DNA of 64,000 nucleotides from Nitrospinota bacterium (lineage in GTDB: Bacteria > Nitrospinota_A > UBA7883 > JACRLM01), in the NCBI GenBank assembly GCA_016208975.1, contig JACQXA010000004.1:372001-436000 (forward strand), written 5' to 3'. Below, in pieces: positions 6,369 to 53,637 of the stretch. Every line of letters begins with the position of its first letter. The stretch's first letter is position 1. The notes under the pieces were generated by a model. It saw nothing but the letters and a program-made list of their open reading frames with translations. It was not told the origin of the DNA and searched no databases. Position numbers and translations under genes: made by a program.

Positions 6369-6475
6369 GCTTCCCCGTGGTCGGGCGACCACGGGGAAGC
6401 AATTACAGGGCGACCACGGGGAAGCAGTCTCAGGACGATGAAGGGAAAGCATAGGGCGGCCACGGGTGGCCGCCC
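6369..6475. repeat. REP-like palindromic repeat cluster
   Basis: A perfect palindrome of 32 bases occupies 6369-6400, with arms GCTTCCCCGTGGTCG and its complement. A half unit CGACCACGGGGAAGCA follows, then a variant palindrome GGGCGGCCA...TGGCCGCCC at 6454-6475. Related units recur at 13034-13094, 17211-17235, 17301-17330, 37069-37096, 37218-37247, 45656-45685 and 46316-46344, always between genes. Confidence 0.85.
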
Positions 6476-12930: not shown

Positions 12931-13147
12931 TTGCGGGAAACGGTTTGTGCAACAGGCCGTTAAGACTCAAATGGTAGCTTATCGAGGGGCGGCTGGCAAT
13001 GGCTGTGGGACGGCAACAATCCAGCGGGCGCCTGCTTCCCCGTGGCCGCCTGACGACGGATTCTCCTTGCTTCCCCGTGGCCGCCGACCACGGTCCTCTG
13101 TCGAATTAATTAAGTCCGGGGTCGGGCGACACCGGCGAAGCGACTGA

Positions 13148-36881: not shown

Positions 36882-37345
36882 TTTTTACCCCCGCCTTAAT
36901 TAGCCACTTATTGAGTCATTCTAGAGCATAGCATTGCATAATGCAACTTTTCATAGCTGACCGCCCACCGGCTGGAAATTAAACCATGGCGCATTGACGG
37001 CGAGAAGGGAAATAAAAAAAGCGGTCGATACTGCCCGGCCTTCGTTCGACTGAGGGTTTGAGTCTAACGCTTCCCAGTGGCCGCCCGACCACGGTTCCTT
37101 CCGGGTGGCTTGTATAAACAACTGACACCGGAGCGCTGAAGCTTTGCGATGGCCGGGGAACTTCACTTATTCAAACGGGAGGAATTAGATGCCGGGAGGG
37201 GGCATTTCCTTAGGCAGGAAACCGTGGTCTGGCGGCCACGGGGAAGCGGGGTTTTGTTTTTTACATACCGGGGGTGTTTAATCTGCCTCTATGGGACAAA
37301 ATAATAACGGCGCGGCCTGTTCCAAACCTGGCCGAAAAAAACCGT
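36882..37345. other. intergenic region with REP-like units
   Basis: No gene is seen in 464 bases between the ParD-like gene and the dsrP stop. It contains two inverted REP-like units (37069-37096 and 37218-37247), which face each other and could pair. A short frame at 36951-37166 has no protein-like features. Confidence 0.55.
37069..37247. repeat. facing pair of REP-like units
   Basis: GCTTCCCAGTGGCCGCC at 37069 and its near reverse complement GGCGGCCACGGGGAAGC ending 37247. They are separated by about 120 bases and belong to the family described at 6369. Confidence 0.75.
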
Positions 37346-42997: not shown

Positions 42998-44416
42998 GTG
43001 TTTGGGATAGACAGGCTCACAATTTCGGGCACCTCCAGAAGCTCCGGGAAAACCACGTTTTCCATAGGATTGCTGGATATTTTCCGGCGGCGCGGCATAG
43101 CCGTACAGCCGTTCAAAAAAGGGCCCGACTATATAGATCCCATGTGGCTTTCCGCCGCCGCCGGGCGGGAATGCCGCAACCTGGATTTCCACATGATGGG
43201 GCGGGAAAATATGCTCCGCTCGTTTCAAACCGCTTCCCAGGGCGCGACCCTGGCGGTTATCGAGGGGAACCAGGGTCTGTTCGACGGGCTGGACCTTGAG
43301 GGGGGCGATTCCACCGCCAGCCTGGCCCGTCTGCTGGACGCGCCCCTTTTCCTGGTGGTGGACTCTTCCCGGATGAACCGGGGAATAGCTCCTCTGCTTT
43401 GGGGATATACCCATTTCGACCCCTCGCTGAAAATCGCAGGGATAATCCTGAACAAGGTGGGCAACCCCCGGCACGAGGCGAAACTGGTGGCGGCCATAGA
43501 CCGTTATGTGGGGGTTCCGGTGTTCGGCGCCATCCCCAAGATGCCCGATGAACTGGAGATGCTGGAGAGGCATCTGGGCCTTATACCCGTGAAGGAAGAC
43601 CCGGCCCTGCCGGAAAAAATAGGCGTGATCGGCCTGGCAGTGGAGCGCCATTGCGACATCGGCCGTATGCTGTCTATCGCCAAAACCGCCAGCCCCATGA
43701 AGAAAACCGGGCCGTGCCTGCGCGGCCCCGAAAAGAAAGCGGATGTGGCCATCGGCGTGGCCATGGACAGGGCTTTCACCTTCTACTACCCGGACAACCT
43801 GGATGCTCTCAAACACGCCGGAGCGCGGATAGTCCCATTCAGCCCCATAAGTGACCAGGACCTGCCGGAGGTGAACGGGCTGTATATCGGAGGCGGTTTC
43901 CCGGAGGTGTTCATGGGCCAGCTGGCCGCCAACACCAGCCTGCTTAGGCGTGTGAAAGAAGAGGCCGAGGCCGGCCTGCCCATTTACGGCGAATGCGGGG
44001 GGCTCATGTACCTGTGCAGGTCTATCGTGTGGAAAGGGGAAATCCGGGGCATGGCGGGGGTAATACCCGCCGACGTGGAGATGACCAAAAAACCGGTGGG
44101 CCTGGGCTATGTCACCATGGAGCCCACGGGGGAATGCCCCTGGCTCCACCCCGGCGCGGAGATACGGTGTCACGAGTTCCACCACTCCCGCCTTATAAAC
44201 GTGGCCGATGGGTTAATATTCGCTTACAACGTGAAACGCGGCCACGGGATTACCGGCAAACGGGACGGCATAGTTTACAAAAACGTTCTGGCGTCATACG
44301 CTCATCTGCATCATTGCGGATCGCCCAACTGGGCGGAGGATTTCGTGAACCTTGTGCGGAGCGCGGGGAAAACGGTTGCCCCCGCTGGCAAAACGCTGGC
44401 GCGGATTGGCGGTTAA
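42998..44416 (+). CDS. dsrN: cobyrinate a,c-diamide synthase family amidase (CbiA/DsrN)
   Basis: A 472-residue glutamine-dependent amidotransferase. The N-terminal P-loop domain (SGTSRSSGKTTFSIGLL) activates the carboxylate with ATP, and the C-terminal class I glutaminase domain has the nucleophile in YGECGGLMYL. Enzymes of this family amidate cobyrinic acid; in dsr clusters the same family is proposed to make the sirohaem amide of DsrAB, which fits the position divergent from dsrA. A GTG start is used and the nearest ribosome site is weak. Confidence 0.9.
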   Translation: MFGIDRLTISGTSRSSGKTTFSIGLLDIFRRRGIAVQPFKKGPDYIDPMWLSAAAGRECRNLDFHMMGRENMLRSFQTASQGATLAVIEGNQGLFDGLDLEGGDSTASLARLLDAPLFLVVDSSRMNRGIAPLLWGYTHFDPSLKIAGIILNKVGNPRHEAKLVAAIDRYVGVPVFGAIPKMPDELEMLERHLGLIPVKEDPALPEKIGVIGLAVERHCDIGRMLSIAKTASPMKKTGPCLRGPEKKADVAIGVAMDRAFTFYYPDNLDALKHAGARIVPFSPISDQDLPEVNGLYIGGGFPEVFMGQLAANTSLLRRVKEEAEAGLPIYGECGGLMYLCRSIVWKGEIRGMAGVIPADVEMTKKPVGLGYVTMEPTGECPWLHPGAEIRCHEFHHSRLINVADGLIFAYNVKRGHGITGKRDGIVYKNVLASYAHLHHCGSPNWAEDFVNLVRSAGKTVAPAGKTLARIGG

Positions 44417-44431
44417 CGGGAGGTTTGGCGG

Positions 44432-44908
44432 ATGACAGACAGGATAGACCTGACGGACTACAAGACCAAAACCGCCTCCACGCTGAAATCCACGTTGCGC
44501 TGGGGGCACGAGCTTGTGTTCCAGGGGCGCACCCAGCGGGGGTATGAGCTGGATTTCGACGCGGCGATGGAATGGGGATGTTCCCCCACCGAGGCGCTAC
44601 TGTTAAGCTTCGCCGGATGCATGGCCATAGACATCGTGAGCATCCTGAGGAAACAGAGGGTGGAGCTGACGGAGTTCCATGTGGACATATCCGCCGACCG
44701 CAATCCCACACCGCCCCAGTATTTCACCGCAATGACGCTGGATTTGAAACTGAAAGGACATGGGCTGGATGACGCCAAGGTTCAAAGGGCAATAGGCCTG
44801 TCGCAGGAAAAATACTGCTCCGTGCGCCACACGTTAAGGCCGGACTTGAAGATCACCATAAACACCATCTTGGAAAACGAACCGCCCCATGAGCAGGAAC
44901 CTGCGTAA
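44432..44908 (+). CDS. OsmC/Ohr family protein
   Basis: A 158-residue OsmC-fold protein with the conserved cysteine in LLLSFAGCMAIDIVSILRKQ and the second in EKYCSVRHTL. Family members reduce organic hydroperoxides or handle persulfides. It lies 15 bases after dsrN, so it is probably co-transcribed with it, and it overlaps the next small gene by 20 bases. Confidence 0.88.
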   Translation: MTDRIDLTDYKTKTASTLKSTLRWGHELVFQGRTQRGYELDFDAAMEWGCSPTEALLLSFAGCMAIDIVSILRKQRVELTEFHVDISADRNPTPPQYFTAMTLDLKLKGHGLDDAKVQRAIGLSQEKYCSVRHTLRPDLKITINTILENEPPHEQEPA

Positions 44909-45218
44909 GCTTTATACCGTAAACGGGGCCACGCCCGACCGGAGCGGCAATCCAGCCCGCAAGGGCGCGTCGGCGCGAAAATTAAAAGCCGTTCCGCCGG
45001 TGGAGAAACCATCGGGGTATGTTTACGGGCTTACAGACAAGAAGAATCCGGCAAAGGTGAGCCATCGTCTGGAAAAAGCCAAGGAGCAAAAAACACGGAA
45101 ACGCTGTTGCGACCCGGAGCATGGAGACCCGTGCAAGTGCCACACCACAAAGAAACTTCGGAAACCGAAGATGAACGCGTTTTTTACCAGCGGGAAAGAG
45201 GAGAGTAAAAAGTCATGA
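44889..45218 (+). CDS. small basic protein of unknown function
   Basis: A 109-residue Lys- and Arg-rich protein with a Cys/His group (RCCDPEHGDPCKCHTTKK) that could bind a metal. No family is recognised. It overlaps the OsmC gene by 20 bases and the next small gene by four, consistent with translational coupling in the dsrN operon. Confidence 0.55.
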   Translation: MSRNLRKLYTVNGATPDRSGNPARKGASARKLKAVPPVEKPSGYVYGLTDKKNPAKVSHRLEKAKEQKTRKRCCDPEHGDPCKCHTTKKLRKPKMNAFFTSGKEESKKS

Positions 45219-45376
45219 AATGCGAGGTGAAGTACCGGCCCATAATCTGGCGCACGCCCGATGATGTCCGGGCAATGCTAAAATCCGCCTATATACAGGG
45301 GGAACAATATTGCCCCGCCTGCGTGGCTGGCGGCAGGATGTCCCGCATAGAGGAACGTTTTGGTGAAACCCTTTGA
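45215..45376 (+). CDS. 53-residue cysteine-containing protein
   Basis: A short frame starting at an ATG that overlaps the preceding stop as ATGA, with GAGGAGAG about nine bases upstream. It contains YCPACVAGGRM, a CxxC motif. No family is recognised. The coupling and ribosome site support it as a real gene at the end of the dsrN operon. Confidence 0.5.
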   Translation: MKCEVKYRPIIWRTPDDVRAMLKSAYIQGEQYCPACVAGGRMSRIEERFGETL

Positions 45377-45713
45377 GAGAGTGACGGAACCTACGCCGTG
45401 TGCGTAGATGAAAACAGGGATATCCACCACGCCACGTCGTTGGATGATTGAATGGGCGAAGCCGGAGCGTCCGCGCCGGCTCGCGCCTCCCCTTTCCCCC
45501 TAGCCGCCATTACATCGCTAACCCGTGGTCGCCCGGCCACGTTTCTTTACCCTCGGCCCGTGCGGAAGATTGCGCCACGAAGGGCTGGGTGATGGTTGTT
45601 AATTTCCATTCTTCACCCCCCCCTGCCCCTCCCATCAATGGAGGGGTAAATAAAGGAAACCGTGGTCGGGCGACCACGGGGAAGCAATTAGAAGGCGTAA
45701 CAGTTTGGCGGCG
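45377..45713. other. intergenic region holding the first long direct repeat
   Basis: No gene is seen. The stretch 45496-45692 is nearly identical to 46155-46351. Confidence 0.7.
45496..45692 (+). repeat. 197-base direct repeat, left copy
   Basis: It begins CCCCCTAGCCGCCATTACAT and ends GGGGAAGCAATTAGA. It differs from 46155-46351 at only about half a dozen positions plus two single-base indels. It includes two REP-like units. The two copies flank the nucleotidyltransferase gene. Confidence 0.92.
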
Positions 45714-46037
45714 TTAGCCTCCAAGGGTGTCATAAAGCACCTTCCCGTCCCGCAAAGCCCAAAACACCGCCGAAGAGCTGGAGTTTTGCCGCTCAATAAC
45801 TTCCGCCTCGGAATAAACCAAAAGGTCGTTGGCCAAACGCAATGGGCGGATGGCTTTGCGAAGGCGAAGGGTTTCGGCTGTCTTGTCTGGAACTTCCGGT
45901 TCTATCACAAGCAGATCCACGTCGGAATCTTCCGTGGCGTTTCCCCTGGCATGGGACCCGAAAAGGATAACCTTTGCCTGCCCGGCTGTTTCACCGATTA
46001 TTCTGGCGGCTTCCTCAATCTTGCTTTCATGGGCCAT
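45714..46037 (-). CDS. MNT-type nucleotidyltransferase (minimal nucleotidyltransferase domain)
   Basis: A 107-residue protein with the polymerase-beta-like active site GSHARGNATEDSDVDLLV (G27, S28, D39 and D41). Such proteins are the antitoxin half of MNT-HEPN modules, where they AMPylate the HEPN RNase. No HEPN gene is adjacent, so it is an orphan or a remnant. It is bracketed by 197-base direct repeats that start 21 bases from one end and about 117 bases from the other. Confidence 0.88.
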   Translation of the reverse strand: MAHESKIEEAARIIGETAGQAKVILFGSHARGNATEDSDVDLLVIEPEVPDKTAETLRLRKAIRPLRLANDLLVYSEAEVIERQNSSSSAVFWALRDGKVLYDTLGG

Positions 46038-46154
46038 TCAAGCCAACCTTTTTAATATCCAACCAGTTCAGCGTTTATGCCCAAATTATAATTTAATCCG
46101 CGTCCGCATATGCAAACTTCTTTTCGCTCATCAATGGCGCTCCACCCCAGCCTC

Positions 46155-46351
46155 CCCCCTAGCCGCCATTACATCGCTAACCCGTGGTCGCCCGGCCACG
46201 TTTCTTTACCCTCGGCCCGTGCAGAAGATTGCGCCACGAAGGGCTGTGTGATGGTTGTTAACTTCCATTCTTCACCCTCCCCCTGCCCCTCCCATCAATG
46301 GAGGGGTAAAGAAAGGAAACCGTGGTCGGCGACCACGGGGAAGCAATTAGA
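46155..46351 (+). repeat. 197-base direct repeat, right copy
   Basis: Partner of 45496-45692 in the same orientation at an offset of 659 bases. The nucleotidyltransferase gene lies between. Confidence 0.92.
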
Positions 46352-46356
46352 GAGGC

Positions 46357-46427
46357 GGCCACGGTGAAGTGCGCAAAAGACGCCACGGTGAAGCGCGCAA
46401 AAACGCCACGGTGAAGCGCGTAAAAGT
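46357..46427 (+). repeat. short tandem repeat array (three units)
   Basis: Three units of 23-24 bases with core GCCACGGTGAAGCGCGCAAAA, directly following the right direct repeat. The core derives from the REP-like sequence CCACGGGGAAGC. There are no spacers, so it is not a CRISPR array. Confidence 0.85.
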
Positions 46428-46659
46428 CGCCGCGTGGAATCGTAACGTATTGTTAATCTTTGCAATAACCACATTGCTACAAACCAGCGTCATGACACAT
46501 GGACAATATTGGAAATTCCTGTTAAAAAACAAACCTGCGCCCGGAATCTTCCGCGAATTACCCGCATCTTAACGATACCCGTATGCGCTTTTCCCATTAA
46601 ATATGGATTTTGCGCGTCAAACGGCTGACCGGTTTTTTTCGATTTCTGGAGAGGGATGG

Positions 46660-51342: not shown

Positions 51343-53637
51343 CTAGAAAGCTCCTCCAATTGTGAAATGGAATTCGTTGGGGCTCTCGCCCGTTCTCTGA
51401 TCCAGCTTGAAGCCGTAGGCTACGGATATGGGGCCCATCGGCGAGAAGAAATGGACGCCGAAACCCCAGCTGTGCCTCATCTGCTCCAGGTCGTAAAGCT
51501 TGTCCGTGGTGTTGTTCTGCACATCGTCCGTCCCGTAAACGTTGCCACGGTCGTAGAACAGGAACCCTCTGAAGTATCTGGTGAACCGGTATTGTAATTC
51601 AAGGTTTAATTGCAGTAAAGCCTGTCCGCCTATGGCCTCCCCTTTTTCGTCCTTGGGGCCAATGTCGCGGATGGTGAAGCCCCTCAGGGTGGTGGGCCCG
51701 CCCAGGAAAAAGCGTTGGGTTATGGGAAGGCCTTTACCCTCATATCCGTCGGCCCGGCCGATGCGGCCATGAACCATTCCAACAAAATCCAGGAACATGG
51801 ACTGGTAATAGGTGTATTCGCCCACAAGCCTGTAATAGCGCTGGTCTCCGCCCAGCCCGGCCACCTCCACGCTACCGTAGATCTTCTGCCCGGCGGTGGG
51901 GCTGAAGGGGTCGTTGCGGGTGTCATAGGTGATGGAGGGGAAAACCGAGCCTGAATCACTGGTTCCCTCCTGCTCCAACAGGTAGGAGCTGGCGGTATCC
52001 CTGTCTATGATGGTCACTTCGTTCTTTTCGTACCGGTACCCCAGCCGCGCGTAAACATATTCGCTTAAAGCCTTGCCGGTCCGTATGGAGCCGCCGGTGG
52101 AGCGGGACTCGTAAGCGTCGTACGTGTATGACTTGTTGTAAACGTCGAACCCGCCGGATATCTCCCGGTCCATAATCGAAGGCTCGGTGAAGCTTATGGT
52201 AAAGTCGCTCCGGCGGCTGGAGGTGTCCACCGAAAGGGAAAGCTCTTGCCCCATACCCAGCAGGTTGCCCCATTTCACCTGTCCCTGGATTATGAGGTTT
52301 TCAAGGGAGCTGTAACCGACGGCGAAAGACAGCTGGCCCGTGGAGCGCTCGGCCACCTTCGTCTCGATATCTATAAGGTCTTCTTCCTTGCGGCTTCTCT
52401 GCTCGATCTCCACGGTGTCAAAGAAGCCCAGGTTGTTGATGCGCTGTTTGCTTCTGCGCAGTTTCTCGCTGTTGAAAAGCTCCCCTTCGGAAAGGCGGAA
52501 CTCGCGGCGGATGACCCTGTCGCGGGTGGATTCGTTCCCCGTGATGTTGATGCGCCCCACATATACCTTGCGCCCCTTGTTGGTGGTGATCTTCACGTCC
52601 ACCGTTTTGGTGTCCTCATGGGTCTCCACGGCGGGGATGACGTTGGCGTAAGCGTAACCTTTCTGGGAGTAAAGGTCGGTGATGTCGAAAATGTCCTGCC
52701 TGAACTGGCTCCGGTTGAACACGTCGCCGGGTTTAAGTTTTATTTTCTCCCTCAGCTCATCTTCGGAATAAACGTCGTCACCGGCTATCTCGATGGAGCC
52801 TACCCGGTACTGGTCCCCCTCCGATATGGGGAACACCACATAGATGCGGCGTTTCTCCTTGTCCACCTCAACTTCCGGGTCGAACACTCGGACCTTTATG
52901 TAGCCGTTGTCGTGGTAGAACGACTCCATTCTCAACAGGTCGGTCTTGAGGGCGTCCTTTTTATACGCTCCTGTTTCGGTAAGCACCGAATACCAGGAGG
53001 CCGGTTCGGTCTCTATCTGGCCTTTCAGCGTCCGCTCCGGGAAGGCGGAAACCCCGCGGAAATAGACCCCGCCCACGGTGATCTTCTGCCCCTCGTCGAT
53101 GATGAACTCCACATCAACGTAATTGTCCTTGAGCTTTTTGACCACCACGCGGGTATCGGAGAAATAGAATCCCTTGTTCCGGTAGGTCTGTTTGATGCGT
53201 GTCTTATCCCAGGGTATCTGGTCTTGCCGGAAGAAGGTTCCTTTCTGGGTTTTTATGCGGGCGCGCAGGATTTTCTCCTCCACTTCCTTTGTCCCGGAAA
53301 TAAGGATGTCCCGCACAAAAGGCTTTTCCTTGAATACGTAGGTAAGCGCAACGCCGCCCTGCTCTTCCTTGAGATCCAGCTGGATGTCGTCGAAGTAGCC
53401 GAGGGCGAAGAGTTTGCGGATGTCCTCGGCGGAAGAGGCCGGGTCGTACTTGGCGCCGGTCTTGGCCTGGATGTAGTACCTTACGGTGTTCCTATCGGCC
53501 CGCACGAGCCCCTTGATGCGGATATCCTTGATTACCCTGGTGTCCGGGGACGCAAAAGCCCGCCCGGGCGCAAGCGCGGACAGGAGCAGTATTAACCCCA
53601 GGGCTATGCTGGAAAAGCGGAAGGGCAATGGTTTCAT
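51343..53637 (-). CDS. bamA: outer-membrane protein assembly factor BamA
   Basis: A 764-residue Omp85 protein. A signal peptide (about 1-29) is followed by five POTRA domains (about 30-415) and a 16-strand barrel ending in the terminal Phe signature FHFTIGGAF. The lid-lock motif region ITQRFFLGGPTTLRGF is present. It inserts beta-barrel proteins into the outer membrane. It lies 18 bases after clpC and just before skp. Confidence 0.97.
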   Translation of the reverse strand: MKPLPFRFSSIALGLILLLSALAPGRAFASPDTRVIKDIRIKGLVRADRNTVRYYIQAKTGAKYDPASSAEDIRKLFALGYFDDIQLDLKEEQGGVALTYVFKEKPFVRDILISGTKEVEEKILRARIKTQKGTFFRQDQIPWDKTRIKQTYRNKGFYFSDTRVVVKKLKDNYVDVEFIIDEGQKITVGGVYFRGVSAFPERTLKGQIETEPASWYSVLTETGAYKKDALKTDLLRMESFYHDNGYIKVRVFDPEVEVDKEKRRIYVVFPISEGDQYRVGSIEIAGDDVYSEDELREKIKLKPGDVFNRSQFRQDIFDITDLYSQKGYAYANVIPAVETHEDTKTVDVKITTNKGRKVYVGRINITGNESTRDRVIRREFRLSEGELFNSEKLRRSKQRINNLGFFDTVEIEQRSRKEEDLIDIETKVAERSTGQLSFAVGYSSLENLIIQGQVKWGNLLGMGQELSLSVDTSSRRSDFTISFTEPSIMDREISGGFDVYNKSYTYDAYESRSTGGSIRTGKALSEYVYARLGYRYEKNEVTIIDRDTASSYLLEQEGTSDSGSVFPSITYDTRNDPFSPTAGQKIYGSVEVAGLGGDQRYYRLVGEYTYYQSMFLDFVGMVHGRIGRADGYEGKGLPITQRFFLGGPTTLRGFTIRDIGPKDEKGEAIGGQALLQLNLELQYRFTRYFRGFLFYDRGNVYGTDDVQNNTTDKLYDLEQMRHSWGFGVHFFSPMGPISVAYGFKLDQRTGESPNEFHFTIGGAF

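What the first reader, a model, noticed from the sequence alone, without database searches (positions are those of the whole stretch)
45496..46351. Orphan MNT nucleotidyltransferase between 197-base direct repeats
The gene is bracketed by nearly identical long direct repeats, so it can be deleted or amplified by recombination. The expected HEPN partner is absent. The repeats include REP-like palindromes, so the unit looks like a composite cassette.
Basis: seen in the sequence. Interest (0 to 1): 0.6.

Follow-up and report, generated by a model that had tools for sequence, protein, structure and literature searches.

The report
Lone antitoxin gene between REP repeats
A small enzyme gene that has lost its usual toxin partner lies between two near-identical copies of a common, hairpin-forming repeat; the repeat belongs to an ordinary repeat family spread through this genome, so the arrangement looks like a local rearrangement scar rather than a new mobile cassette.

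Summary
A 197-nt direct repeat (45496-45692 and 46155-46351; 96.6% over 204 nt with gaps) brackets a 107-aa MNT nucleotidyltransferase with an intact GSX10DXD motif and no HEPN neighbour. The 'composite cassette' reading is not supported. Each repeat is a REPIN-like unit: two REP palindromes in inverted orientation around a spacer that resembles another dispersed repeat. The repeat matches about 65 distinct places in this 2.97-Mb Nitrospinota genome, nearly all at the palindrome, and a REP-associated tyrosine transposase (RAYT) sits inside an array of it, 23 kb outside the window. In a REP-rich 52-kb stretch of contig C3 there are 42 direct-repeat pairs, several bracketing unrelated genes. None of ten other HEPN/MNT loci lies within 26 kb of a match. 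The orphan state is real: five of five sister MNTs have a HEPN directly downstream; here the repeat begins about 20 nt after the MNT stop. Most likely REP-associated rearrangement duplicated a REPIN and removed the HEPN; that step is inferred. Ordinary, low interest. In passing: orf53 next door looks like an unannotated small selenoprotein with a conserved in-frame TGA.

The parts
45496..45697 (+). direct repeat copy 1: REPIN-like unit (half-REP, REP, spacer, inverted REP)
46155..46357 (+). direct repeat copy 2, 96.6% identical to copy 1
45517..45543 (+). left REP of copy 1, decayed head GCTAA instead of GCTTC
45659..45685 (-). right REP of copy 1, inverted, head GCTTC
45545..45650 (.). spacer of copy 1: resembles a second dispersed repeat (CTTTACCCTCG...CCCCTCCCATCAATGGAGGGG); weak Rfam whalefall-1 match below its cut-off
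45714..46037 (-). MNT nucleotidyltransferase (MntA-like), 107 aa, GSX10DXD intact, no HEPN partner
46352..46440 (-). array of half-REPs (GCTTCACCGTGGC, period 23-24) continuing from copy 2
37069..37247 (.). another inverted REP doublet in the window with an unrelated spacer
6369..6466 (.). further REP and half-REPs
13034..13094 (+). further tandem REPs

Best explanation
The two 197-nt repeats are copies of one REPIN/BIME-like unit of an endogenous REP-RAYT family: two REP hairpins (GCTTC-CCCGTGGTCGCCCGACCACGG) in inverted orientation around a spacer that is itself similar to another dispersed repeat. The two copies are the only full-length ones in the genome and lie in the same orientation 462 nt apart, so a local duplication is more likely than two independent insertions. 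The MNT gene is the antitoxin half of a former HEPN/MNT (type VII) pair. Its HEPN, which in sister loci follows directly, was most likely lost when a REP-associated rearrangement placed repeat copy 1 where the HEPN should start. Shown: repeat anatomy, REP family, RAYT, pairing of the sisters, absence of HEPN. Inferred: the duplication route, the order of events and the loss of HEPN.
For: 81 matches in the own genome, 65 distinct places after merging overlaps, nearly all the REP end alone; 2 full copies. REP consensus with head GCTTC and inverted doublets, also around the RAYT. RAYT at C4:348316-348834, NCBIfam REP_Tyr_transpos 88.0 bits against a cut-off of 80, inside a REP array. A 62% identical RAYT in G009, a genome with 24 matches, lies 7 nt from a REP. 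HEPN directly downstream in 5 of 5 sister MNTs. All 10 HEPN/HepT-like genes over cut-off have an MNT neighbour, so no spare partner was found. HEPN decay also occurs elsewhere: one sister HEPN holds a TGA, and the HEPN near CobB in the same-family relative matches only positions 3-86 of 117. Relatives: 0 of 9 DsrE-flanking regions hold this MNT; G004 has CobB-OsmC-DsrE with about a 120-nt gap.
Against: No HEPN remnant is detectable, so loss from this very locus is not proven; the MNT may have arrived alone. The nearest relatives are too divergent for an exact empty site. Two independent REPIN insertions are not excluded.
Confidence: 0.72

Rival explanations
1. Composite mobile cassette: RAYT acts on the outer REPs and moves the whole REPIN-MNT-REPIN block, as an IS pair moves a composite transposon.
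For: Inverted REPs at both outer ends, a RAYT of the same REP family in the genome; MNT absent at this place in 9 of 9 relatives.
Against: One copy of the block only; the other ten HEPN/MNT loci are not within 26 kb of any match; REP-built direct repeats surround unrelated genes. [quoted passage not shown]
Confidence: 0.06
2. Single-crossover integration: a small circle with one REPIN plus MNT recombined with a resident REPIN, leaving a direct repeat on each side of the cargo.
For: Geometry (659-nt unit, same orientation, 97% identity) is what such an event leaves.
Against: No circle or source locus known; the same geometry follows from tandem duplication plus deletion.
Confidence: 0.12
3. The two repeats are independent insertions of the same REPIN, and MNT is bracketed by chance.
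For: REPs are dense in places and cluster.
Against: They are the only two full copies in 2.97 Mb, in one orientation, and share flanks out to the half-REPs.
Confidence: 0.1

Closest known systems
REPIN/BIME with RAYT (REPtron)
   Same: Inverted REP doublets, many dispersed copies, array around a single RAYT gene, strong hairpin. Tandem near-identical REPINs with duplicated flanks and an unrepeated stretch between units are described for Pseudomonas fluorescens SBW25 (passages of PMC3116915).
   Different: REP head is GCTTC, not GT[AG]G. The RAYT motifs NHIH, WQ, YIHNNP fit subclass 2.6 (mostly Bacteroidetes, atypical structures) in Table 1 of PMC6006769. The spacer here is long and resembles a second repeat family; the unrepeated stretch holds a gene.
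HepT/MntA (type VII, HEPN/MNT) toxin-antitoxin
   Same: MNT family and GSX10DXD motif.
   Different: No HEPN; score 37 below the NCBIfam MntA cut-off of 60.
Composite transposon or mobile insertion cassette (recalled, no call)
   Same: Cargo between two copies of a repeat.
   Different: No evidence that the block moved as a unit.

Membership tests
REPIN (RAYT-associated REP doublet) | two REP palindromes in inverted orientation with a spacer | tested here: met
REPIN (RAYT-associated REP doublet) | high copy number REP in intergenic DNA | tested here: met
   81 matches, 65 places; intergenic position was not scored systematically
REPIN (RAYT-associated REP doublet) | cognate RAYT in the genome flanked by the same REP | tested here: met
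REPIN (RAYT-associated REP doublet) | 5' GT[AG]G guide tetranucleotide (canonical REPs only; atypical structures are described for subclass 2.6) | tested here: not met
   head is GCTTC; this makes it an atypical REP, so 'works like a REPIN' is firmer than strict membership
REPIN (RAYT-associated REP doublet) | mobilised by RAYT | not testable with these tools
   needs reads or experiment
HepT/MntA type VII TA | MNT with GSX10DXD | tested here: met
   alignment: GS-HARGNATEDS-DVD
HepT/MntA type VII TA | adjacent HEPN/HepT gene | tested here: not met
HepT/MntA type VII TA | NCBIfam MntA cut-off | tested here: not met
   37 bits against 60
Composite mobile cassette | block found at more than one place or with an empty site | tested here: inconclusive
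   one block only in the genome; relatives lack MNT there but are too divergent for exact ends
Composite mobile cassette | repeat associated with cargo genes of one kind | tested here: not met

The most novel reading that the evidence does not exclude
The solitary MNT is kept because it acts in trans as an antidote to the genome's ten HEPN toxins, and the flanking REPINs let the population lose or amplify this antidote by recombination.
Probability: 0.05. Interest if true: 0.5.

Novelty: new member of a known kind. Interest (0 to 1): 0.2.

Why it matters
It shows a REP-RAYT family, with an atypical GCTTC head, in a Nitrospinota genome, and gives an example of a toxin-antitoxin module reduced to its antitoxin at a REP-associated breakpoint. 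If strain variation were shown, it would illustrate how REP rearrangements prune TA modules. By itself it does not change the field.

Tried and rejected
Rejected: MNT-specific cassette (no match within 26 kb of ten other HEPN/MNT loci). Rejected: a spare HEPN elsewhere for this MNT (all ten over-cut-off HEPN/HepT-like genes have their own MNT neighbour; the sub-cut-off match at C4:255393 was not examined). Rejected: a HEPN remnant in the locus. Rejected: a structured RNA (whalefall-1 at 22.3 and 18 bits against a gathering score of 37). Inconclusive: exact empty site; the relatives with synteny are order-level. The same-family relative (L117, taken to be G001 because its matches have the same coordinates) has CobB, orf53, a GalE-like ORF (name recalled from its sequence, no family search), then its own MNT and a HEPN on the opposite strand to the window's MNT, 40% identical and not treated as an orthologue. 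PADLOC gave only weak matches to candidate families for the MNT and none for the RAYT. Paper searches; of PMC6006769 I saw passages and section 17, of PMC3116915 and PMC7641770 passages only, the rest as search listings. One search (REP-associated tyrosine transposase with Nitrospin-) returned 0 papers; one search (REPIN, toxin-antitoxin, direct repeats) returned 2, irrelevant by title and start of abstract. That REP elements can serve as recombination points for duplications is recalled, not from a call.

Full report
Observation. It brackets a 107-aa ORF on the minus strand, 45714-46037, which is a minimal nucleotidyltransferase (PF01909) with GSX10DXD intact (alignment). It is the only direct-repeat pair of this size class within 8 kb in the window.

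What the repeat is. The own genome (G000, 2.97 Mb, 4 contigs; window = C4:372001-436000) has 81 BLAST matches to the repeat, 65 distinct places after merging overlaps (32 on C4, 26 on C3, 7 on C1). Only two are full-length; nearly all the others are the terminal palindrome. A partial unit, spacer half plus REP, occurs at C1:78545-78634 (82%) and C4:2401-2494 (75%). Aligned copies give a REP consensus GCTTC-CCCGTGGTCGCCCGACCACGG-(A/T)TTCCT. In the 197-nt unit two such REPs stand in inverted orientation, heads outward, which is the REPIN/BIME arrangement. The left head has decayed to GCTAA. As single-stranded DNA the unit folds at z -7.6 against shuffles. The spacer resembles a second dispersed repeat, pieces of which lie in G001 away from any REP in the stretches printed.

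The transposase. The genome has one Y1 transposase match. It passes the NCBIfam cut-off for REP-associated tyrosine transposases (88.0 against 80) and lies inside a dense REP array, with several inverted doublets 35-45 nt apart. Its motifs NHIH, WQ and YIHNNP (seen in the sequence) match subclass 2.6 in Table 1 of PMC6006769, which is listed with atypical secondary structures. Matches to the repeat occur in 5 of 40 genomes, the own one included. Of these, G009 carries a 62% identical RAYT 7 nt from a REP and has 24 matches, whereas G001 (10 matches) has only a weak RAYT match and G011 (3 matches) none. G008 has a split 48-51% RAYT and no match to the repeat. The three G024 matches are to the spacer palindrome, not to the REP. 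So RAYT-REP co-occurrence across relatives is suggestive, not strict; several of these genomes are fragmented.

Is the repeat tied to its cargo? No. In 52 kb of C3 there are 25 REPs and 42 direct-repeat pairs (at least 80 nt, at least 80% identity, less than 8 kb apart), for example C3:41719-42185 / 44238-44697 around a 596-aa ORF and C3:49312-49564 / 53300-53558 around several ORFs. This stretch was chosen because REPs are dense there, so it is not a random sample, and its ORFs are mechanical calls that were not searched against families. Ten other HEPN/MNT loci lie between 26 kb and 324 kb from the nearest match, or on a contig with none.

Is the MNT an orphan? Yes. The five other MNT matches of the genome each have a PF05168 HEPN directly downstream on the same strand. 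The two remaining PF05168 genes and the three PF01934 genes over cut-off also have an MNT-like domain beside them, so I found no unpaired HEPN. In the window the place of the HEPN is taken by repeat copy 1, whose gapped end (45697) lies 16 nt from the MNT stop codon. No HEPN remnant is visible. HEPN decay is seen elsewhere: one sister HEPN contains a TGA, and the HEPN near CobB in the same-family relative matches only positions 3-86 of 117.

Context in relatives. The CobB match of 75% is to a Nitrospinota MAG (JADGAO010000013.1), whose genome gives the same match coordinates as G001. In nine order-level DsrE regions none holds an MNT within the stretch taken (0 of 9; one stretch is only 3 kb). 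G004 keeps CobB-OsmC-DsrE with about 120 nt between OsmC and DsrE. The MNT plus repeats are thus probably a lineage-specific addition, but the exact empty site cannot be drawn.

Mechanism. Most likely, a REPIN in the orf53-DsrE intergenic region was duplicated locally, by slippage or recombination between REPs, and the same instability removed the HEPN half of a TA pair. Shared flanks out to the half-REPs on both sides, one orientation, and absence of any third full copy favour a local event over two independent insertions. The SBW25 study describes tandem REPINs with duplicated flanks separated by an unrepeated stretch (passages), which is the closest described geometry.

Verdict. A real but ordinary arrangement: a REPIN pair around a solitary MNT. 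New member of a known kind; interest 0.2.

Noticed in passing
window 45215-45454 (+): orf53 continues in frame through a TGA at 45374 to a stop at 45452. The TGA and the following peptide (E.DG.YAVCV) are conserved at the same position in all 4 genomes with a match, of 40 searched (own, G001, G006, G009), and the genome has a tRNA-Sec (76.9 bits): a likely small selenoprotein without Pfam or NCBIfam match. A downstream hairpin is weak in the window (z -0.26) and better in L117 (z -1.66).
   Followed up: partly
G000:C3:24000-76000 (L099-L101): Stretch crowded with REPs: 25 in 52 kb, nearly all in one orientation, against 7 in the 64-kb window.
   Followed up: partly
G000:C4:1039510-1039851: HEPN gene of an MNT-HEPN pair carries an in-frame TGA.
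   Followed up: no
window 44889-45218 (+): 109-aa ORF overlapping the OsmC end, no family match.
   Followed up: no
L117:9130-9784: Same-family relative has an MNT-HEPN pair about 1.6 kb beyond CobB-orf53, HEPN apparently frame-shifted near its end.
   Followed up: partly
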